From positions 1 through 64,000 of the forward strand of contig SSGY01000005.1 of NCBI GenBank assembly GCA_008017145.1: a stretch of DNA of 64,000 bases. Direction: 5' to 3'. The DNA is from Neisseriales bacterium. Its GTDB lineage: Bacteria > Pseudomonadota > Gammaproteobacteria > Burkholderiales > UBA11063. The notes beneath the pieces are model-generated. The model saw only the letters and a list, made by a program, of their open reading frames with translations, ran no database searches and had not been told where the DNA came from. Position numbers and translations under genes: made by a program. Positions 4,196 to 31,633 of the stretch are shown one piece after another (the stretch's first letter is position 1; every line of letters begins with the position of its first letter).

Positions 4196-4241
4196 CCTGT
4201 GCAAAAACCCAGTTTTAATATTTTTGGCAAAATCATATAAT
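4196..4241 (+). promoter_or_regulatory. Promoter with lux-box-like dyad, copy 1
   Basis: CTGTGCAAAAACCCAG at 4197-4212 is a CTG-N10-CAG dyad. TATAAT follows at 4236-4241. The -35 position (about 4213-4218, TTTTAA) is poor, which suggests activator dependence. The dyad centre is about 43 bp upstream of the predicted start. The first 30 bp are identical to the copy at 5069, and the dyad recurs before the deaminase operon at 11963, always with the same 40-bp offset to the -10. Confidence 0.65.
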
Positions 4242-4281
4242 TCTGTCTGAAGCAAAATAACCTTTTCTGAAAGAATAAATT

Positions 4282-4923
4282 ATGAAAAAACTACTTATGA
4301 TAATGTCAACTTTAGTAACTTTGAGTGCATGTAACAGTGGTGCTGGGCAACAATACAAGCAAAATGGTTATTCAGATAATATAACTGCGATAGCTAGTCA
4401 GTCTTTACCGCAACCAGTACCAAACGTTCCGTCTGGTTTTGAGAGTGATAACAGTTTGTGTCAGGCAAGAACCGATATGGTTGATTCCGGTAAATTTTAC
4501 CTTCTTGTTGGAACAGTTTTAAGTAGCCCAATATACAAGGATGGAATAAACCAAAAAAACGTTGAATTGTCTCATACTCATTTTCATGTTTTACCATTAG
4601 GTGAAAGTAATCCGCAAAATTACTATGATGTGGCAGCTGATAATGTATTTACTTCCGGTTATGATCAGGCTCAGCCAAATAAATCTGTGCCAGCACCCTT
4701 AAGTAATTTAGTATCTGGCACAACAGTTGAATTATGTGGAATTACTTATGCTGATAAATCTCCACAAACTGGTGTTGTATCTAATGGGATTCATTGGGTA
4801 CATATAGCCAATCAGCAAATGACCGAAGGTGGTTGGATCAAAATTATTAATTCAGATGGAAGCTTAAGCGATAATTTGGAAAATAACACTGAGTATCTAT
4901 ACTTATGGTCCTCAGATAATTGA
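4282..4923 (+). CDS. Lipoprotein of unknown function
   Basis: The product is 213 aa. The first 17 residues are a lipoprotein signal (MKKLLM, hydrophobic core, lipobox LSAC with Cys17), so the mature protein is lipid-anchored and probably faces the periplasm or the surface. The mature part is rich in Asn, Ser and Gly, and I recognise no domain in it. Two cysteines (in SLCQART and ELCGITY) could form a disulfide. It starts at ATG 4282, shares its promoter type with the next lipoprotein gene, and is closed by a hairpin at 4989-5015. Function is unknown; the shared promoter is the only functional clue. Confidence 0.85.
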   Translation: MKKLLMIMSTLVTLSACNSGAGQQYKQNGYSDNITAIASQSLPQPVPNVPSGFESDNSLCQARTDMVDSGKFYLLVGTVLSSPIYKDGINQKNVELSHTHFHVLPLGESNPQNYYDVAADNVFTSGYDQAQPNKSVPAPLSNLVSGTTVELCGITYADKSPQTGVVSNGIHWVHIANQQMTEGGWIKIINSDGSLSDNLENNTEYLYLWSSDN

Positions 4924-4988
4924 CCCAGCTTAAACGCTTAGCACATGATCGCTAAAGCTAAAGATTACTATCGACAGGGAATTATGAT

Positions 4989-5020
4989 AATTGAGATAGC
5001 GCAGCTATCTCAATTTTATT
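4989..5020 (+). terminator. Intrinsic terminator after the lipoprotein gene
   Basis: A 12-bp perfect stem (AATTGAGATAGC at 4989-5000 with GCTATCTCAATT at 5004-5015) and a GCA loop are followed by TTATT. It separates the two lipoprotein genes, which therefore have separate promoters. Confidence 0.75.
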
Positions 5021-5068
5021 TATATCTTATTGATATGCATAAATTCAATAAGTTAAATTATCTACAAC

Positions 5069-5114
5069 CCTGTGCAAAAACCCAGTTTTAATATTTTTTG
5101 CTGTCACTTATAAT
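5069..5114 (+). promoter_or_regulatory. Promoter with lux-box-like dyad, copy 2
   Basis: The same CTGTGCAAAAACCCAG dyad lies at 5070-5085, in a 30-bp block identical to that at 4196-4225. TATAAT at 5109-5114 is again 40 bp from the block start. A 5' leader containing TCTG and an ACAAAA run follows, similar to the other two copies. Confidence 0.68.
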
Positions 5115-5154
5115 CTAGTCTGTACTTAAACAAAACTAACTATCAGGAACTATT

Positions 5155-6594
5155 ATGAAAAAACTACTTAGCGCTCTTCTACCATTGTTTGTTCTAACTG
5201 CCTGTGTCGGATCAAATAACAACCAAAATCCAACTAATAATTCTACTCTCAATAGCGGTACACTAGCTAATATAAATACCACGATTGACCCAACTACAAT
5301 TGGCTTTGCCGCAAATTTTGCTGCTCAGCATGCAGATTTACAAATTGCTTTTGCACCATATTATGAATCAGGTAGTCAACATAGTGCGGGAGAGTGTTCC
5401 AATGCTCAGGATATTTATGCTACCACAATCGCGCCAATAATGAAAGTAAGCGAAAGCTCTACTTTGAATAGTCTTTGGAATAGCGATGAATATTTTAACT
5501 GCAATGCGGGGATAACCAAGTTAGTTGTTGCTTCAATAACTAGTGCTAAACTGTCAATTCGTGCTGCCGTATATGATTTTAATAACCCTGATATTACCTA
5601 TGCTCTGATTCAAGCAAAACGTAATAATCCACAACTTGATATTCAGGTAATTGCTGATAAGGCTAATCTAACTGATACTAATTCAATGATTGCCGTCTTA
5701 GCGCAAAATAATATTCCAGTCTATATTGCGTCAGCTTATGCAATTATGCATAATAAATTTATGGTGATCGATAATCAATCTGTCGAATATGGTAGTTTTA
5801 ATTATTCAACTACCGCAGCGACACGTCAAGCCAATAATGCAATTTGGATTGACAATAGTAACATTGCTGCCAGCTATACCGAACGCTGGAATGAAATCCG
5901 TGCAAATCAAGCAACTTCTGTTTACCAAATCAGTCAGTCGCAATATTCTGAGCAACCATATGATTCTGGTGTAAATGTTGTTGCTAGCGCAAAAACGGAA
6001 GTAGTTGGGAAACAAATTTATAGTTTGACTCTTGATAATACTGATATTGACAGTGTACATAATTTGGTAAATGCCGAAAGCGCAGTAATTTGTCCAATTT
6101 CAATGACAGCTTTAGGAGCAAGCTGTTTGCCAAATTATAGTTACTACTCTCAGGGTTCATATTATCAAAATTCACCGTTTTACCAAGCAATAAATAATGC
6201 TCAACAGTCAATTCAAATTGCCATCTTTACTTTTACTGATAAAGCTCTGGTGGATGATTTAATTGCTGCCAAAAATCGTGGAGTAAAAGTACAAGTCGTT
6301 GCTGATTATTCGCAGGGCACTCAATCCTACAGTACTGCGGGGTTTGAAAAATTAATTCAGAATGGAATTGAAGTTCGAATTAATAAATCATACGAATTAT
6401 TACACGATAAATACATGATTATTGATGGTAATACTGTCGAAACTGGCAGCTATAATTATACTGCTTCAGCACAAACCAAAAATGCTGAAAATTATCAAAT
6501 TTATCATAATAATCAACAATTGGCTCAACTTTATCAGCAAGATTGGCAGGCAGTTTTTGATCAAGGATATCCATATCAAGCGCCAGCACAATAA
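5155..6594 (+). CDS. Phospholipase D-like (PLD superfamily) lipoprotein, two HKD motifs
   Basis: The product is 479 aa with a lipobox LTAC (Cys17), so it is probably membrane-anchored outside the cytoplasm. It has two complete HxK(x4)D motifs: HNKFMVID near residue 198 followed by GSFNYS, and HDKYMIID near residue 416 followed by GSYNYT. Both halves of the bilobed active site are therefore intact. PLD-superfamily members with this short spacing include nucleases (Nuc type) and phosphodiesterases or phospholipases; the sequence alone does not separate these. The linker at about 255-330 is Asn/Ser-rich. It shares its promoter motif with the preceding lipoprotein and with the purine deaminase operon, so a nuclease role is attractive but inferred. 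Confidence 0.88.
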   Translation: MKKLLSALLPLFVLTACVGSNNNQNPTNNSTLNSGTLANINTTIDPTTIGFAANFAAQHADLQIAFAPYYESGSQHSAGECSNAQDIYATTIAPIMKVSESSTLNSLWNSDEYFNCNAGITKLVVASITSAKLSIRAAVYDFNNPDITYALIQAKRNNPQLDIQVIADKANLTDTNSMIAVLAQNNIPVYIASAYAIMHNKFMVIDNQSVEYGSFNYSTTAATRQANNAIWIDNSNIAASYTERWNEIRANQATSVYQISQSQYSEQPYDSGVNVVASAKTEVVGKQIYSLTLDNTDIDSVHNLVNAESAVICPISMTALGASCLPNYSYYSQGSYYQNSPFYQAINNAQQSIQIAIFTFTDKALVDDLIAAKNRGVKVQVVADYSQGTQSYSTAGFEKLIQNGIEVRINKSYELLHDKYMIIDGNTVETGSYNYTASAQTKNAENYQIYHNNQQLAQLYQQDWQAVFDQGYPYQAPAQ

Positions 6595-6626
6595 ATTTTA
6601 GTTATTGTTTATATACTTCCAATGTG

Positions 6627-6659
6627 GGTGTAGATTTATTAATTTAAGAAATCTACACC
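6627..6659 (+). terminator. Inverted repeat, possible terminator after the PLD gene
   Basis: An 11-bp perfect stem (GGTGTAGATTT at 6627-6637 with AAATCTACACC at 6649-6659) lies 32 bp after the stop of the PLD-like gene. There is no strong T-run after it on the plus strand, so Rho-independent action is uncertain. Confidence 0.5.
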
Positions 6660-6679
6660 TAGTTAAATTTATCTGAACT

Positions 6680-6744
6680 GGTCGCTGATTTACTCTTCAC
6701 TTACGAGTAATAAGCTTCGCCGTAAATCACTTATTAGCAATCCC
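6680..6744. repeat. Structured intergenic repeat, copy 1
   Basis: This has a 42-bp core at 6687-6728, with outer stem GATTTAC/GTAAATC and inner stem CTTA/TAAG. It aligns without gaps to 62370-62411 (31 of 42 identical). The paired positions change together: the outer-stem end is C-G here and T-A in the other copy, and the inner-stem second pair is T-A here and C-G there. Confidence 0.6.
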
Positions 6745-6795
6745 ACACAGAAAATATTAAATACAATCAATCGCTACCTACAAAGTACCGCATCA

Positions 6796-7521
6796 TCAAT
6801 AAACATCAATATGACCGGCTGGCAATTTCACATTAACCATTAAATCCTGTGGGATAACTTGATAAAACCCTAAACTGATCAATTTATCGTACAGTCCATC
6901 GCGAGTATAAACATCAAATTTTATCCGTAATTGATTGGCAAATACTGCATCAATAGCACTTTTAGAAATAGTTTTGTTTTCTGCTGTTGATATGACACTA
7001 GCAATTTCCTGGCTAGTTAAACCATGAATAAATAAAAAAATGACCTGCTTTTCACGTTTACTTAAATTAAATTTTTTAAAATTGGTATTAACCGAGAAAT
7101 CATAAACCTTAAGCGCTTTAAGAATACTAAATTTCAGATTCGTATACAGGATTTTGCGTAATTCTACATATAATCCAGCTACTTCATTGTTATCTGGATT
7201 TATTAGCGGTTTTTTATTGGTTGTATAAGGTTGAACAATACCTTCATAATAATTAAAATTAATTGAATAGTTCGGAGTTTTGGTTTGGATTATTTCTTCC
7301 TGCTCTTTTAATGATTGTGACTGAAAATATTGCCCCAACTCATCAGGTAATCCTCGATTACCTTCTTGTGCTTGCTCACCGCGAACTTGCCGGTATTGTT
7401 GGCTGCTAAAAAGAATCACTTGATTCAAATCATAAATAGCAATCGGTGACAGAAACATTAGCTCGTCAAGATTACGATAGTTGCTGATCACTGATTCAAG
7501 ATATTCGGTATTCGATTTCAT
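6796..7521 (-). CDS. PAS-like/LuxR-type transcriptional regulator
   Basis: The product is 241 aa. The N-terminal part (about 15-130) looks like a PAS sensor domain (opening FLSPIAIYDLNQVILFSS). The C-terminal part (about 150-215) reads NLSKREKQVIFLFIHGLTSQEIASVIS, a LuxR/GerE helix-turn-helix with a short insert before the recognition helix (KTISKSAIDAVF). It has no receiver domain and no homoserine-lactone signature that I can see. It lies between the lipoprotein genes and the deaminase cluster, whose three promoters share a dyad of lux-box geometry, so it is the obvious candidate regulator of them. Its own upstream region (TATAAT on the minus strand near 7604) lacks the dyad. The signal is unknown. 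Confidence 0.8.
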   Translation of the reverse strand: MKSNTEYLESVISNYRNLDELMFLSPIAIYDLNQVILFSSQQYRQVRGEQAQEGNRGLPDELGQYFQSQSLKEQEEIIQTKTPNYSINFNYYEGIVQPYTTNKKPLINPDNNEVAGLYVELRKILYTNLKFSILKALKVYDFSVNTNFKKFNLSKREKQVIFLFIHGLTSQEIASVISTAENKTISKSAIDAVFANQLRIKFDVYTRDGLYDKLISLGFYQVIPQDLMVNVKLPAGHIDVY

Positions 7522-7724
7522 TTTTAGAGCCTTTTTAATAAAATTAACTAATTATTTTTATAATAACTCAACCACAGTCTATTTCAATGATTTTGGGTGA
7601 TTATAACATATCAGTTTTATTAAAAAAGGTTGCATTAGCTCTATTGTGTAGGTTCTGTTATAGAATCAGTTGCTGATAGTGAGTAATTTATTCGAAGTTT
7701 TGATATTTATCGTGATTTAAGTAA

Positions 7725-7754
7725 AATAAGCTTCCTTATGCCAGAAAGCTTATT
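7725..7754 (-). terminator. Terminator of the deaminase operon
   Basis: A 9-bp stem (AATAAGCTT at 7725-7733 with AAGCTTATT at 7746-7754) lies 18 bp after the stop of the last gene. On the minus strand the stem runs into TTATTTTA. Confidence 0.6.
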
Positions 7755-7771
7755 GAGATAATAAAATGATA

Positions 7772-9106
7772 TTATGATCTCTTGCTATCGTAAACCTTAT
7801 TACCATAAATATAAGTAGCATCTATAATTCGATCATCACCAAGGGAACTGATTGAAAATAGATAATCTAGTAAGTCATGAGAACTTTCCAAGCGATAGTT
7901 TAATAAATCATTTGCAGCAGGATCAATTACGATAAAATCCGCTTCTTTACCAACTTCAAGACTGCCAATATATTGATCCAATTGTAAAGCTTTGGCTGAG
8001 CCAAGGGTAGCAGAAAACCATCTGCTTAAAGTTTCGAGCTTAAATGAATTTAACATTGCAACTTTATATGCATCATCCATAACACGGAGCATTGATAAGG
8101 TATTTCCAGCGGCCCAATCAGTAGCTAATGCAAATTTTGCATCCTTGGCAATTGCCACATCATAACGAAATAAACCACTGCCTAAATAATTATTACTGGT
8201 TGGACAATTTGCCAAAATTGCTCCTTTAGTAACCATTCGATTCCATTCGCTATCAGATAAATGGATACAATGTCCATAGATTGATTTATTGGTTACCAAA
8301 TCATATTTTTCATATACGGCAAGATAATCTTCTGCCCACGGAAATTTAGTTAATGTATCTTGAATTTCGTTTTTATTTTCACATAAATGACTTTGAATAT
8401 AAACATCTGGATGGGTGTGGACAAATTCCTGGCATAATTGTAAAGTTTCTTCGGTACAGCTTAATGCAAAGCGCGGAGTTAAAGCATAAGAAATTCTGCC
8501 GGTATTATGCCATTTTTGATATAGTTTCTCACTGATTTTCATGCTGGTTGCCGGCGTGGTTATTAAATCATCATTGCCATCGGTCATAATGGTATTGCCC
8601 ATGATTACACGCATATTATACCTATGCGTAATTTCAAATAACAAATCCGCACCATCATATGAATTAGGTAAATATGCACAAATTGAAGTTGTTCCATTTT
8701 TAAATAATTGTTTCAATAAAATTTCGTATTCACGTCTAGCAGAGATATCGCTCTTAAAAGCCACTTCACTTGGAAAAACATAATTATTCAACCAAGTTAA
8801 TAATTTCTCACCATAAGCGCTAACTGCTGAAGTTTGAGTTGCATGCATGTGGGCATCAATAAAGCCTGGTGTGATTAATTTATTGCTGTAATCAACCACC
8901 TGATCTTCAGCACAAATTTGGTGCTTGATGCTGTTATAGTCACCGATTGCACTAATTTTGCCATTTTCCACCGCAATTAAGCCATCACGCAAGAAAGTAA
9001 AATGTTCTTCATCAACAAATAAGCTATCCGGAACTAATCCCTGAATATTTGCTAATGTTGCGCTATGGTTAAAAGTAAAGATTTTTCCACGATAAAATGT
9101 TTTCAT
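7772..9106 (-). CDS. Guanine deaminase-like amidohydrolase (copy with canonical pocket)
   Basis: The product (444 aa) is a cytoplasmic zinc amidohydrolase, most like guanine deaminase (guanine to xanthine and ammonia). Metal and substrate motifs are in order: PGFIDAHMHATQ (HxH), YGEKLLTWLNNYVFPSE (typical of the guanine deaminase family), TPRFALSC (the Arg-Phe pair that contacts guanine in known structures), SHLCENKNE, GHCIHLSD and LATDWAAGNTLSML (metal-binding Asp). The family's usual GGG after the Asp is replaced by AAG. It is the last gene of a run with an MFS transporter and a paralogue of identical length. Another purine or pterin substrate cannot be excluded. Confidence 0.85.
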   Translation of the reverse strand: MKTFYRGKIFTFNHSATLANIQGLVPDSLFVDEEHFTFLRDGLIAVENGKISAIGDYNSIKHQICAEDQVVDYSNKLITPGFIDAHMHATQTSAVSAYGEKLLTWLNNYVFPSEVAFKSDISARREYEILLKQLFKNGTTSICAYLPNSYDGADLLFEITHRYNMRVIMGNTIMTDGNDDLITTPATSMKISEKLYQKWHNTGRISYALTPRFALSCTEETLQLCQEFVHTHPDVYIQSHLCENKNEIQDTLTKFPWAEDYLAVYEKYDLVTNKSIYGHCIHLSDSEWNRMVTKGAILANCPTSNNYLGSGLFRYDVAIAKDAKFALATDWAAGNTLSMLRVMDDAYKVAMLNSFKLETLSRWFSATLGSAKALQLDQYIGSLEVGKEADFIVIDPAANDLLNYRLESSHDLLDYLFSISSLGDDRIIDATYIYGNKVYDSKRS

Positions 9107-9200
9107 TATATTTTCCTTTTGTAAATTTTATGTTTAAATTTTGAGTTAGCTATGGATTGATTCATTATCATGCATAATTCCACCTAGCTTGAATAGTTGT

Positions 9201-10466
9201 TTAGTCAATTTTTGCAGTAAAAAATAAGCTGCTGATAAAGCTGGCAAGCAAGATTACTACCAAAATTGATAATCCCAGATTATAATGATGCCATGCTTGC
9301 TGAATAATTGGCTGATCGAGTAAATTGTACGCTGTTACTACCGCATGTTTTGGCAAGTTGTAGGAATTATTACCAATAATCATTCCTATTCCTGGTTGCA
9401 AAATCAAACCGGCAAACAGATAAGAAATTGTCAAAATACAAGAATTTGCCATTGGGCGCAAACTAACTTCTTTAAATGCTACTTGTACTTCCTGAAATGC
9501 CAACATGCCACCACCACAGCCAATCCCAAATAATAGTTGGATCGCAGTGCTAATAGTGTAAGCCTCTTTAGTCGGAAAACGAACATATAATGTAACAATC
9601 ATTGCTAATAATAAAATTAAACTAAATGTAGCCGCAATAAGGCGATTGCGTTTATATTTACTTGATAGACTTCCTGCAATTACACCACCAATAGCAATTC
9701 CCAACGGAATCATTCCATTTAAAATGATTGCTTTTTGCGCGGGCATTTGAAAAATTACTTCGCGGTATTTAACATTAAATAAATCCGCATAGGCTAAAAT
9801 AGTTGCAAAAATTCCGCCAAAGTAGATAGTCGCTGCAATAAACCGTTTATTAAATAAAATTGTTTTCAAGTTTTTAAATAGGGAACTGTCGTTTTGCCCG
9901 TTGTTATTTTGTGGTTTGTTCGGTAAAAATACAAAGATAAATCCTGCCGCAATTAACAATAAAATACCGATCAAATTATATGCTGCCTGATATGAGTAAC
10001 CGCTAATCAAACTACTTCCAAATATTGCAATTACACCCGCAGCAATATTGCCAATACTTTGGCTTAATGATGCAAAGAAAGCAAATTGACGCGAAAATTC
10101 CAGCTCAACAATATATAATACCCCTACAAAGGTACAGCCAAGCCCAAGTCCAATTATTACTCTGGCAACGATCAATAAGCCAAAAATATGCGTATTGGCA
10201 AAAATTAATACTCCACCGGCAGCAAGTATTGCTGAAATCCCCAATAAGAGTTTTGTTGATACTTTATTGATCAAATATCCGGAATAAAGTTGTGAAAAAG
10301 CAAATACTGCAAAAAAAGTACCAGATAATATCGCCAATTGGGTATTACCAAGATTGTTTGCTAGTTGAATTGGTAAGGCATATGCGCCAAATAATACCGA
10401 GCTCATGATGCTAATCATAAATAGGAATTCCGTAGAAATCCAACGACAATAGCTTAATGATTTCAT
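9201..10466 (-). CDS. Major facilitator superfamily transporter
   Basis: The product (421 aa) is an inner-membrane protein with about 12 hydrophobic segments and a loop rich in Asn and Gln (PNKPQNNNGQNDSS) between the two halves, as expected for an MFS carrier. The first cytoplasmic loop has GYLINKVSTKLLLG, a degenerate MFS motif A. It sits between two guanine-deaminase-like genes on the same strand (gaps of 78 and 94 bp), so a purine or related nucleobase is the most likely substrate. This is inferred from context only. An inverted repeat lies just upstream of it. Confidence 0.82.
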   Translation of the reverse strand: MKSLSYCRWISTEFLFMISIMSSVLFGAYALPIQLANNLGNTQLAILSGTFFAVFAFSQLYSGYLINKVSTKLLLGISAILAAGGVLIFANTHIFGLLIVARVIIGLGLGCTFVGVLYIVELEFSRQFAFFASLSQSIGNIAAGVIAIFGSSLISGYSYQAAYNLIGILLLIAAGFIFVFLPNKPQNNNGQNDSSLFKNLKTILFNKRFIAATIYFGGIFATILAYADLFNVKYREVIFQMPAQKAIILNGMIPLGIAIGGVIAGSLSSKYKRNRLIAATFSLILLLAMIVTLYVRFPTKEAYTISTAIQLLFGIGCGGGMLAFQEVQVAFKEVSLRPMANSCILTISYLFAGLILQPGIGMIIGNNSYNLPKHAVVTAYNLLDQPIIQQAWHHYNLGLSILVVILLASFISSLFFTAKID

Positions 10467-10495
10467 ATAAGTTTCTTTCTTAATATTTTTATTTG

Positions 10496-10524
10496 AGAAT
10501 ATACCAGCCCATCTGGTATATTCT
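10496..10524 (-). repeat. Perfect inverted repeat between deaminase and transporter genes
   Basis: AGAATATACCAG at 10496-10507 pairs with CTGGTATATTCT at 10513-10524 around the loop CCCAT. No U-run follows on the minus strand, so this may be an operon-internal RNA hairpin (processing or polarity) or a protein operator rather than a terminator. Confidence 0.6.
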
Positions 10525-10544
10525 TGAATCCATATTATGGCAGC

Positions 10545-11879
10545 TTATTTCATTTTTTTACCCATAATATAGGTGTGAGCAACCGAGCGATCGTCACCAA
10601 TAATTTGGAAAGCAAATAGTAAATCACGAATATCTTCACTTTGCTCCGCACGTATAGCCAGATCACTAGTACTATTAGAGTCTAAAACAATGAAATCCGC
10701 TTCCTTGCCACTTTCAAAGCTGCCAACATAGTGATCAATTGACATTGCACGAGCGGCACCAAGCGTTGCCAAATAATAATTTTCTAAAGGATCTAGTGGT
10801 TCAATCTCGCGTGGATTATCTGCAAAAGCTTTTCGCAATTGAGTTACTTTATATGCTTCACCCATCGTTTTTAGCATTGATAAAGTTGTTCCTGCCGCAT
10901 AATCGGTACCCATACCTACCGTTGCATGGTGTTGGTTAGCTCTTTGCAGGTTAAACAAACCACTTCCCAAAAATAAATTTGAGGTCGGTAAAAAAGCACA
11001 AGATGATTTACGTGCCGCAATTAGCTCAAATTCTGCATCATCAAGCCAAACACAGTGTCCCATAATGGTTTTCTCATTCATTAATCCATAATGATCATAA
11101 ACTTCAGTGTAGTTTTTTAATCCCGGGAATAATTTGGTAACCATATCACCGGATTCTTTATTTTCCGCCAAATGTACTTGAATATGTATATCTGGATAAT
11201 CTTTTAATAATGCCTGTGTTGCTTCCATCTCAGCTGGGCTTAATAAGTAGGCTGAACGAGGGCTTACAGCATAGTTAGTACGACCCCGTCCATTCCAACG
11301 TTCAATTAAATTTTTATTGAAATCGTAGACCTCTGCAGGTGGCAAACAAGCGTAATCTGGAGTATTTACATCCATGTACGCACTTCCGCCAATAACTCGC
11401 ATATTGCGTTTCAGTGCCGCATTAAATAATGCATCCGTTGAATTTGGAGAAATGGTAGCAAAAATTGCTGCACTAGTGGTTCCGTGTTTAATTAATTCAT
11501 CTAAGTACAAATTAGCAATTTTATCTGCATATTCGCGATCGGCCAATTTTCTCTCAGTTGGAATTGTATATTTATTGAGCCATTGAACCAATTGTTCGCC
11601 ATAAGATCCAACCATTTCCATTTGCGGGTAATGAACATGTGAATCCATCAAACCAGGTGTAATTAATTTACCGCTATAATCAACTATTTCTGCTTGCGGA
11701 TACTGAGCTTGTAATTCGCTAAAATTACCAGCTTCAACTACTTTACCATCGGCAATATATAATACGCCATTCGGAAAAAAGTGATATGCGTTTTTATTAA
11801 ATTTAGGGTTATCAGTAAAATAAAATACTGAGCCTTTATAGCCGGTTAATTTGCTGTTTTTATTTGTTGGAGTATTCAT
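10545..11879 (-). CDS. Guanine deaminase-like amidohydrolase (divergent pocket)
   Basis: The product is 444 aa, the same length as the paralogue at 7772-9106. It keeps the guanine-deaminase landmarks PGLMDSHVHYPQ, SYGEQLVQWLNKYTIPTE, VHLAENKESG, GHCVWLDD, PTSNLFLGSGLF and GMGTDYAAGTTLSML. The usual PRF (guanine-contacting Arg-Phe) is PRS here, in SPRSAYLLSP, suggesting altered specificity. It is the first gene of a presumed three-gene operon (deaminase, MFS, deaminase). It is preceded by GTTTTC-rich leader sequence, an AAGGA ribosome site and the lux-box-like promoter at 11918-11963. The exact substrate is uncertain. Confidence 0.83.
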   Translation of the reverse strand: MNTPTNKNSKLTGYKGSVFYFTDNPKFNKNAYHFFPNGVLYIADGKVVEAGNFSELQAQYPQAEIVDYSGKLITPGLMDSHVHYPQMEMVGSYGEQLVQWLNKYTIPTERKLADREYADKIANLYLDELIKHGTTSAAIFATISPNSTDALFNAALKRNMRVIGGSAYMDVNTPDYACLPPAEVYDFNKNLIERWNGRGRTNYAVSPRSAYLLSPAEMEATQALLKDYPDIHIQVHLAENKESGDMVTKLFPGLKNYTEVYDHYGLMNEKTIMGHCVWLDDAEFELIAARKSSCAFLPTSNLFLGSGLFNLQRANQHHATVGMGTDYAAGTTLSMLKTMGEAYKVTQLRKAFADNPREIEPLDPLENYYLATLGAARAMSIDHYVGSFESGKEADFIVLDSNSTSDLAIRAEQSEDIRDLLFAFQIIGDDRSVAHTYIMGKKMK

Positions 11880-11917
11880 TTTGTTTTCCTTAAGAAAGTG
11901 GTTTTGTTCAGAACGTT

Positions 11918-11963
11918 ATTCTAATTTTTTATGGAAAAAAATGGTACTGGGTTTTTACGCAGG
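11918..11963 (-). promoter_or_regulatory. Promoter with lux-box-like dyad, copy 3
   Basis: On the minus strand CTGCGTAAAAACCCAG is followed by TAGAAT (11923-11918), which begins exactly 40 bp after the start of the block, as in the two lipoprotein promoters. Sequence between the dyad and the -10 is not conserved in this copy, so the dyad itself is the retained element. Confidence 0.65.
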
Positions 11964-30949: not shown

Positions 30950-31633
30950 ATGGAAAAATTTTTAATCAATGATCCTCACGTTCAGCAACGGGTAGTTAAT
31001 TCACTGGAGAAACTTTGGGATTTAACCGATGATTTGGTGGAGTTTTATCCACGCTATCAAGAGTATACAGTGACAGTGTTTGGCTCGGCAAGAATTGCTG
31101 AGGATTCACTTGTTTATAAAGATGTTTTTGATTTCGCTTCTAATTTGGCACGGTTGGAGTGTAATGTAGTAACTGGTGGTGGACCTGGGGTAATGGAGGC
31201 GGCTAATCGTGGAGCTATAGCTGGGAAACTAGCTCAGTCGCCAGTAAAGTCGGTGGGAATTAATATTGAATTACCTTTTGAGCAAAAAAATAACCCTTAC
31301 TTGGATGAATCATTTCCACATAAGACATTTTTCACCAGATTACAGCACTTTACGGCTGTATCTGATTGTTTTGTGGCATTTTATGGTGGAATTGGCACGG
31401 TTTTAGAAATATTAACTATTTTACAGCTAATGCAAGTTAAAAAAATTGATAATCGCAAACTTATTTTAGTTGGTAGCATGTGGCCTGGATTAATTAAATG
31501 GTTTGAGGCAGAAATGTTAAACGATGATATGCAGCTTATTCATAGTGGTGATTTAGTGATACCAAAGTTGGTAGATCATTATCAAGATGCTTTGGAGATT
31601 ATTAAGCAGCATAAAGTACAACAAGATTTATAG
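30950..31633 (+). CDS. LOG-family (TIGR00730-like) nucleotide 5'-monophosphate phosphoribohydrolase-like protein
   Basis: The product is 227 aa with a Rossmann-like fold. The family motifs are TVFGSARIAEDS, VVTGGGPGVMEAANRGA and AFYGGIGTVLEILTILQLMQ (the usual PGGxGTxxE, here YGGIGTVLE). Members cleave the N-glycosidic bond of purine nucleotides (cytokinin-like substrates) and were once labelled lysine decarboxylases. The changed first residue of the PGG motif may mark a subgroup. It lies 22 bp before pheS and is probably cotranscribed with pheST-ihfA. Confidence 0.82.
   Translation: MEKFLINDPHVQQRVVNSLEKLWDLTDDLVEFYPRYQEYTVTVFGSARIAEDSLVYKDVFDFASNLARLECNVVTGGGPGVMEAANRGAIAGKLAQSPVKSVGINIELPFEQKNNPYLDESFPHKTFFTRLQHFTAVSDCFVAFYGGIGTVLEILTILQLMQVKKIDNRKLILVGSMWPGLIKWFEAEMLNDDMQLIHSGDLVIPKLVDHYQDALEIIKQHKVQQDL

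What the first reader, a model, noticed from the sequence alone, without database searches (positions are those of the whole stretch)
4196..11963. Three promoters share a lux-box-like dyad at an identical position
CTGTGCAAAAACCCAG (twice, inside 30 bp of identity) and CTGCGTAAAAACCCAG are found upstream of two lipoprotein genes and, on the other strand, a deaminase-transporter operon. In all three the -10 hexamer starts exactly 40 bp after the start of the block, and the -35 is poor. The CTG-N10-CAG dyad (16 bp) centred near -43 is the geometry of the classical lux box and of LuxR-type class II activation. This looks like an undescribed local regulon.
Basis: partly seen in the sequence, partly recalled or inferred. 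Interest (0 to 1): 0.8.

Follow-up and report, generated by a model that had tools for sequence, protein, structure and literature searches.

The report
Guanine-salvage regulon with shared operator box
Three promoters in this bacterium carry the same 16-letter switch, most likely read by a sensor protein encoded among them that resembles a Vibrio quorum-sensing receptor, and some sister sensors in related bacteria appear to read slightly different versions of the same switch.

Summary
CTGYGYAAAAACCCAG occurs three times in the window (0 in 100 shuffles), each time starting 39 nt before a -10 hexamer. One relative (L001) keeps all three boxes; a second, whose length matches Aquella oligotrophica P08T, keeps two. 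In orthologous promoters the box is 88-100% identical, the 57 bp upstream only 26-42%. It is not a dispersed repeat.

The AHL lux-box reading is not supported: of six related genomes, none has the AHL-binding domain and none a LuxI above cut-off. The likely reader is encoded in the cluster (6796..7521, minus strand): a PAS + LuxR-HTH protein whose closest solved structures are all VqmA. Its apparent regulon is two guanine deaminases, an MFS transporter, a Nuc-like PLD lipoprotein and a small lipoprotein.

The build recurs. Some paralogous regulators in related genomes (11 of 70 above a control threshold) have boxes of the same plan, six bases - AAAA - six bases, with a -10 23-24 nt on, but other outer bases (CCT/AGG, CTA/TAG, CC/GG). 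A candidate specificity residue coincides with one known in VqmA. Most paralogs show no such box. Binding, activation and ligand are inferred.

The parts
4196..4213 (+). operator box 1 (C-CTGTGCAAAAACCCAG-T) upstream of the small lipoprotein gene
4236..4241 (+). -10 hexamer TATAAT
4282..4923 (+). small lipoprotein (213 aa), no Pfam, NCBIfam or PDB-sequence match
5069..5086 (+). operator box 2 (C-CTGTGCAAAAACCCAG-T)
5109..5114 (+). -10 hexamer TATAAT
5155..6594 (+). PLD-family lipoprotein (479 aa), Nuc/NucT-like
6796..7521 (-). VqmA-like PAS + LuxR-HTH regulator (241 aa), proposed reader of the boxes
7772..9106 (-). guanine deaminase 2 (TIGR02967 451 bits, cut-off 375.4)
9201..10466 (-). MFS transporter, substrate unknown
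10545..11879 (-). guanine deaminase 1 (TIGR02967 482.7 bits, cut-off 375.4)
11918..11923 (-). -10 hexamer TAGAAT
11946..11963 (-). operator box 3 (C-CTGCGTAAAAACCCAG-T)

Best explanation
The three blocks are operators of one small regulon. A VqmA-like one-component activator (PAS sensor plus LuxR-type HTH), encoded at 6796..7521, binds each 16-bp box (CTGnGY-AAAA-ACnCAG) as a dimer. The box is centred near -43 and abuts a poor -35, so the bound dimer would recruit RNA polymerase in class II fashion to a good -10. The output is a small lipoprotein, a PLD/Nuc-like lipoprotein and a guanine deaminase - MFS - guanine deaminase cluster, suggesting scavenging of nucleic acid or guanine, with a purine or related heterocycle as a plausible PAS ligand. 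The regulator belongs to a family expanded in Aquella and its relatives, and some paralogs appear to use boxes of the same build with different outer bases, so the cell would run several insulated regulons on one operator plan. Shown by computation: the boxes, their spacing, their conservation in three genomes, co-occurrence with the regulator, homology to VqmA, and recurrence next to some paralogs. Inferred: binding, dimerisation, activation, ligand and the specificity code.
For: 3 exact boxes against 0 in 100 shuffles. All 3 exact copies in the 3.0 Mb relative G001 lie at the orthologous locus, which is rearranged. Both copies within 1 mismatch in the 2.82 Mb Aquella genome lie within 5 kb of the regulator orthologue; the 18 other genomes searched, whose best match to the regulator is 48% identical, have 0 exact copies. 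Across 8 sites in 3 genomes: box 88-100% identical in pairs, upstream 57 bp 26-42% identical in the 7 orthologous pairs, a -10-like hexamer at the same offset in 8 of 8. Regulator: the top 8 Foldseek hits are VqmA chains; phmmer gives only the four VqmA entries at E <= 0.01. Paralog boxes: 19 sites in 796 kb of regulator loci (8 of them the sites already known, 11 others) against 2 in 400 kb of G017 control stretches. Of 70 regulators, 11 have a box-like site within 500 bp above the 99% quantile of 400 control draws. N-free 16-mer searches without the -10 then turned up further sites with the -10 at the predicted place: CCTGGC type at G017:1372605 and G014:C134:62774, CTAAGT type at G020:C21:7813, and 6 of 7 new exact CCRYGYAAAAACRCGG sites (at least 5/6 of TATAAT; background 2.8%).
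Against: No binding, transcription-start or expression data. In the window the boxes lie 1.7-4.4 kb from the regulator gene and none is in its own promoter. 59 of 70 regulators showed no box above threshold within 500 bp, so the plan is not shown for the whole family. Leaving out the 8 known sites, the excess is about 15 against 5 per Mb. The control stretches come from G017 only and are not centred on promoters. The CCRYGY...RCGG regulon has no clearly linked regulator. The regulator scores below the Pfam GerE cut-off (19.6 against 23.5), and the model superposes only partly on VqmA (TM about 0.5). The scan criteria were set after seeing the first boxes.
Confidence: 0.75

Rival explanations
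1. The boxes are real operators, but another, unlinked regulator (for example of the CRP/FNR family, also class II) binds them; the neighbouring VqmA-like gene is incidental.
For: No box lies in the regulator's own promoter, and the CCRYGY...RCGG regulon is dispersed with no clearly linked regulator.
Against: The exact box co-occurs with the close regulator orthologue (2 of 2 genomes with it, 0 of 18 without). Paralog boxes CCTGGC...AAGG or ACGG lie in the divergent promoter of their regulator in the 4 genomes where that locus was fetched, and CTAAGT...TAG lies next to its regulator in 3 genomes. The spacing TGTG-N6-CACA does not fit CRP TGTGA-N6-TCACA (CRP consensus recalled; CRP genes were not searched for).
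Confidence: 0.12
2. A classical lux box bound by an AHL-type LuxR.
For: CTG-N10-CAG dyad centred near -43.
Against: PF03472 found in 0 of 6 related genomes; LuxI over cut-off in 0 of 6, with one weak hit in G003. The window's own genome is not held, so this is by relatives. Outer triplets vary between paralogs while the A-tract core is constant.
Confidence: 0.03
3. Recent duplication of promoter segments or a dispersed repeat, with no regulatory meaning.
For: Boxes 1 and 2 share 30 bp in the window.
Against: Box 3 shares little beyond the box; orthologous promoters keep the box while flanks have diverged; only 3 exact copies in 3.0 Mb of G001.
Confidence: 0.02
4. The regulator binds the boxes but as a repressor, with the dimer covering the -35 region.
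For: The box ends exactly where the -35 would begin; catabolic operons are often under repressors (general knowledge).
Against: The -35 hexamers are poor (3/6 and 1/6 matches, read), so an activator is the simpler reading; VqmA activates vqmR (abstract of PMC8284805).
Confidence: 0.08

Closest known systems
VqmA-VqmR/DPO quorum sensing of Vibrio cholerae and the phage VP882 VqmA-qtip switch
   Same: PAS + LuxR-HTH receptor; closest solved structures; palindromic operator; the HTH residue A192/E194 known to contribute to promoter specificity (abstract passages of PMC8284805) aligns with residue 196 here.
   Different: Operator is CTGnGY-AAAA-ACnCAG rather than GG-N6-CC or GG-N9-CC (passages of PMC8284805). 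The boxes precede genes for lipoproteins and guanine deaminases, not an sRNA or qtip. The HTH has extra residues before the recognition helix. Relatives of the regulator are present in up to 42 matches per genome.
LuxR/lux box class II activation (Vibrio fischeri; lux box sequence recalled, not seen in the passages of PMC5601948)
   Same: 16-bp CTG-N10-CAG dyad near -43 with poor -35.
   Different: No AHL-binding domain and no LuxI over cut-off in 6 relatives; variable outer triplets, constant A-tract core.
GuaD-type guanine deaminase (6ohb/6ohc)
   Same: Both deaminases are members of the guanine deaminase family.
   Different: Two deaminases with an MFS transporter and, through the shared box, secreted lipoproteins.

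Membership tests
VqmA-type PAS-LuxR receptors | N-terminal PAS sensor joined to a LuxR-type HTH | tested here: met
   AF2 model (mean pLDDT 78.1): top 8 Foldseek hits are VqmA; many further hits are PAS/LOV domains. HTH: GerE E=0.00072, below Pfam's cut-off.
VqmA-type PAS-LuxR receptors | binds DPO | not testable with these tools
   No ligand assay; pocket residues not analysed.
VqmA-type PAS-LuxR receptors | GG-N6-CC or GG-N9-CC operator | tested here: not met
   Box is CTGYGYAAAAACCCAG; known operators from passages of PMC8284805.
VqmA-type PAS-LuxR receptors | activates an sRNA gene | tested here: inconclusive
   All three boxes precede protein genes by 83-85 nt; sRNA genes were not searched for.
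AHL LuxR / lux box | autoinducer-binding domain PF03472 | tested here: not met
   Not among the regulator's Pfam hits; found in 0 of 6 related genomes.
AHL LuxR / lux box | LuxI-type synthase PF00765 | tested here: not met
   0 of 6 related genomes over cut-off; one weak hit in G003. The window's own genome is not held.
AHL LuxR / lux box | CTG-N10-CAG dyad near -43 | tested here: met
   start sites inferred from the -10, not mapped.
Class II activation | operator abuts or overlaps -35, centred about -41 to -43 | tested here: inconclusive
   Geometry met on the predicted -10; transcription starts not mapped.

The most novel reading that the evidence does not exclude
Aquella and its relatives run a lineage-specific set of VqmA-like receptors on one operator plan (six bases - AAAA - six bases, -10 at 23-24 nt). 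The outer base pairs and an HTH residue, the equivalent of VqmA A192/E194, insulate the regulons: acidic residue with CC...GG boxes, non-acidic with CT...AG boxes. The sequence set would amount to a readable protein-DNA specificity code, with each receptor sensing its own small molecule.
Probability: 0.35. Interest if true: 0.78.

Novelty: new variant of a known kind. Interest (0 to 1): 0.63.

Why it matters
VqmA is studied in vibrios and their phages as a quorum-sensing receptor. Here relatives have multiplied in a lineage that includes the tap-water isolate Aquella oligotrophica, and seem to control catabolic and secreted-protein genes through a set of related operators. That would show the PAS-LuxR module as a general small-molecule sensor rather than only a quorum sensor, give natural receptor-operator pairs for a protein-DNA specificity code, and offer a candidate purine-responsive transcription factor.

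Tried and rejected
Lux box / AHL reading: disfavoured. Dispersed repeat: rejected. CTG-N10-CAG itself as the mark of the whole family: rejected, because loci of other paralogs show no general excess of it; the shared part is the core. A first regular expression for regulators found none, not even the window's, and was replaced by an HMM. Paralogs without a box: 59 of 70 scored below threshold; I did not find what they bind. A pattern with the -10 included, up to 3 mismatches, gave 11 hits in 20 genomes but also 5 reversed-control hits, so its single hits are leads only. Autoregulation of the window's regulator by the box: no box found within 500 bp of its ends. Literature: searches; 'VqmA-like' returned no paper, and guanine deaminase + LuxR + PAS domain returned none. 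Papers: passages of PMC8284805, PMC7387800 (not used) and PMC5601948; PMC6612550 by the start of its abstract and a term search that found nothing. The lux box sequence and the CRP consensus are recalled. A second structure prediction, the VIA re-ranking and two of three protein searches were not used.
Full report
What was checked. The exact pattern CTGYGYAAAAACCCAG gives 3 matches in the window and 0 in each of 100 shuffles. At up to 3 mismatches the count is 4 against 1.81 expected, which alone would not be significant. The first base of each block is 39 nt before TATAAT, TATAAT or TAGAAT. The position where a -35 would sit reads TTTTAA, TTTTAA and TACCAT (read).

Conservation. A search with the 241-aa protein encoded among the targets (6796..7521, minus strand) found one locus in the species collection, L001 (85% identity, MAG 'Burkholderiales bacterium'). 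L001 carries the same genes in a different arrangement, and the same three boxes are the only exact copies in that 3.0 Mb genome. A second relative, G017, is a single contig of 2,820,660 bp, the chromosome length given for Aquella oligotrophica P08T in the abstract of PMC6612550 (listing). It has the regulator (85% identity), one exact box in front of the PLD lipoprotein gene, and a one-mismatch box, a perfect 6-AAAA-6 palindrome, in front of guanine deaminase 1. A counterpart of the small lipoprotein gene with a third box was not seen in the 20 kb fetched there. Over the 8 sites the box is 88-100% identical in pairs. The 57 bp upstream are 26-42% identical in the 7 orthologous pairs and 19-33% in the 3 pairs within the window. 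The -10-like hexamer sits at the same offset in 8 of 8, and a T follows the box in 8 of 8. Of 20 genomes with relatives of the regulator, searched at up to one mismatch, the two with a close orthologue have the boxes at its locus (3 exact in G001; 1 exact and 1 one-mismatch in G017). The other 18 have 0 exact copies and five single-mismatch hits; reversed-control hits over the 20 were 3. Those five hits and one stray one-mismatch hit in G001 were checked: 1 of 6 has a -10-like hexamer at 22-24 nt, and it has no ORF of 60 aa or more starting 45-300 nt on.

The genes. Both deaminases pass the curated cut-off of TIGR02967 guanine deaminase (451.0 and 482.7 bits against 375.4), with 6ohb guanine deaminase the best solved relative. 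The 479-aa lipoprotein has PLD domains and its best solved relative is the endonuclease 1byr; NucT models match below their cut-offs. The 213-aa lipoprotein matches nothing. The common theme of nucleic-acid or guanine use is an inference.

The regulator. Pfam finds a sub-threshold GerE match (19.6 bits, cut-off 23.5). phmmer against solved structures gives only four VqmA entries at E <= 0.01 (7dwm, 6ugl, 6kju, 6ide; named VqmA in the titles). An AlphaFold model (mean pLDDT 78.1, pTM 0.58) has VqmA chains as its top 8 Foldseek matches, with TM near 0.5 or less, followed mostly by PAS/LOV domains. Relative to VqmA the HTH has extra residues ahead of the recognition helix. The AHL-binding domain PF03472 was found in 0 of 6 related genomes, and no LuxI passes cut-off in the same 6, with one weak hit in G003.

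The family. Of 61 genomes searched, 20, all among G001-G023, have matches to the regulator at E <= 0.001: up to 42 in G017, 22 in G020, 18 in G001 and G016 (the match list was cut, and weak matches may be other LuxR-HTH proteins). A scan for C...RYAAAAAY...G with a TATAAT-like hexamer (at most one mismatch) at 22-24 nt gave 19 sites in 796 kb of 56 regulator loci (the window's first 16 kb included) and 2 in 400 kb of 20 G017 control stretches; neither control site precedes an ORF. Of the 19, 8 are the window/L001/Aquella sites already known, so the fair comparison is 11 in about 749 kb against 2 in 400 kb. Two of the control stretches turned out to hold family members (L157, L158), and one control site lies 306 bp from one. 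The box CCTGGCAAAAACAAGG or CCTGGCAAAAACACGG lies between a regulator paralog and its divergent neighbour in G017, G020, G023 and G014. CTAAGTAAAAATGTAG lies by another paralog in G017 (with a second copy 5.6 kb on), G023 and G020; in G011 the counterpart is CTCAGTAAAAACTTAG. Scoring the 500 bp around each of 70 regulators, 11 exceed 15.67, the 99% quantile of 400 control draws (maximum 17.34), where about 0.7 would be expected; 59 do not. The scoring was designed after the first boxes were seen, and control draws are not centred on promoters.

Tests not using the -10. Whole-genome searches with N-free 16-mers gave 5 exact hits of CCTGGCAAAAACAMGG in 14 genomes, with 0 reversed-control hits. 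All 5 have TATAAT at 23 nt. Four were known; G017:1372605, and the one-mismatch site G014:C134:62774, were not, and both have TATAAT at 23 nt and precede related genes. The one-mismatch G016 hit has no such hexamer at 22-24 nt. CTAAGTAAAAATGTAG gave 4 exact hits, all known, with TAAAAT or TAGAAT at 24 nt; a new one-mismatch site in G020, before the counterpart of the same MFS gene, also fits and a G004 one does not; reversed-control hits were 2. CCRYGYAAAAACRCGG gave 29 hits at up to one mismatch, 10 of them exact, against 8 reversed-control hits. Of the exact ones 9 of 10 have at least 5/6 of TATAAT at 22-24 nt; of the 7 not found earlier by a scan that used the -10, 6 do. Of the 19 one-mismatch hits, 10 do (3 of these known before) and 9 do not. 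Reading the translations, 7 of the 10 exact targets look like lipoproteins, 2 are deaminases resembling the window's second one (G017, G020) and 1 is another secreted protein. A wider pattern, CYRYGYAAAAACVCRG, gave 18 hits against 0 reversed-control hits in G001-G023, and 13 against 16 in the other 38 genomes. Its letters were taken from known boxes: only one of the 18 was new to me, and that one (L210) has no -10. Of the 17 G001-G023 hits with a locus, 14 have at least 5/6 of TATAAT at 23-24 nt; of 13 outgroup hits, 0; background in the G017 controls is 2.8%. The outgroup hits lie in visibly GC-richer DNA, so the G017 background is the fairer comparison.

A possible specificity code. In VqmA the HTH residue A192 (V. 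cholerae) or E194 (phage VP882) contributes to promoter choice (PMC8284805, abstract passages). Counting back from the shared RxKF motif, this position is residue 196 of the window's regulator; the phage chain in 7dwm is numbered three higher than the paper. Across the 15 regulators with a nearby box it is N with CT...AG (window, L001, G017), D with CC...GG (4), S, A or K with CT...AG or GT...AG (5), E with CC...GG (2, both in G003), and N with CC...GG in one (L117), which does not fit; whether that box is its own is unknown. With four groups for and one case against, this is a hypothesis.

Verdict. The proposed mechanism (class II activation by a LuxR-type protein) is likely in outline, but the protein is of VqmA type and the operator belongs to a wider set. 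The regulator's binding, the sign of regulation and the signal are untested.

Noticed in passing
G017 (Aquella), G020, G023, G014: L173, L183, L189, L195, L176, L184, L177, L185, L191, L180: Dispersed CCRYGYAAAAACRCGG boxes, 7 of 10 in front of lipoprotein-like genes, with a -10 23-24 nt on; a second, larger regulon whose regulator is not identified.
   Followed up: partly
L173 (G017:C1:137292) and L191 (G020:C60:25683): A deaminase resembling the window's second guanine deaminase stands behind a CCGTGT...GCGG box, whereas in the window and L001 its counterpart lies in the CTG-box gene cluster: a possible regulatory rewiring.
   Followed up: partly
L082, L083, L084, L086; L164 and L165: CCTGGC box in the divergent promoter of a regulator paralog and a membrane protein gene (weak EamA match in one), and also before a flavodoxin/YjgF-like protein gene (G017; a related gene in G014).
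   Followed up: partly
L087 9892 and 15466: Two identical CTAAGTAAAAATGTAG boxes 5.6 kb apart, in front of an MFS gene and a MarC-family gene.
   Followed up: partly
window 30276 (+): CTGAATAAAAACTGCG with TAAAAT 24 nt on; the next listed ORF of 120 aa or more on that strand begins at 30950; probably chance.
   Followed up: no
L001 8294..9490 and L068 10346..11455: An extra MFS transporter gene in the cluster of both relatives that was not seen in the window's cluster.
   Followed up: no
window 6796..7521 among 72 aligned family sequences: HTH of this family has extra residues ahead of the recognition helix; another subfamily (for example L114, L116, L117, L158) lacks them.
   Followed up: partly
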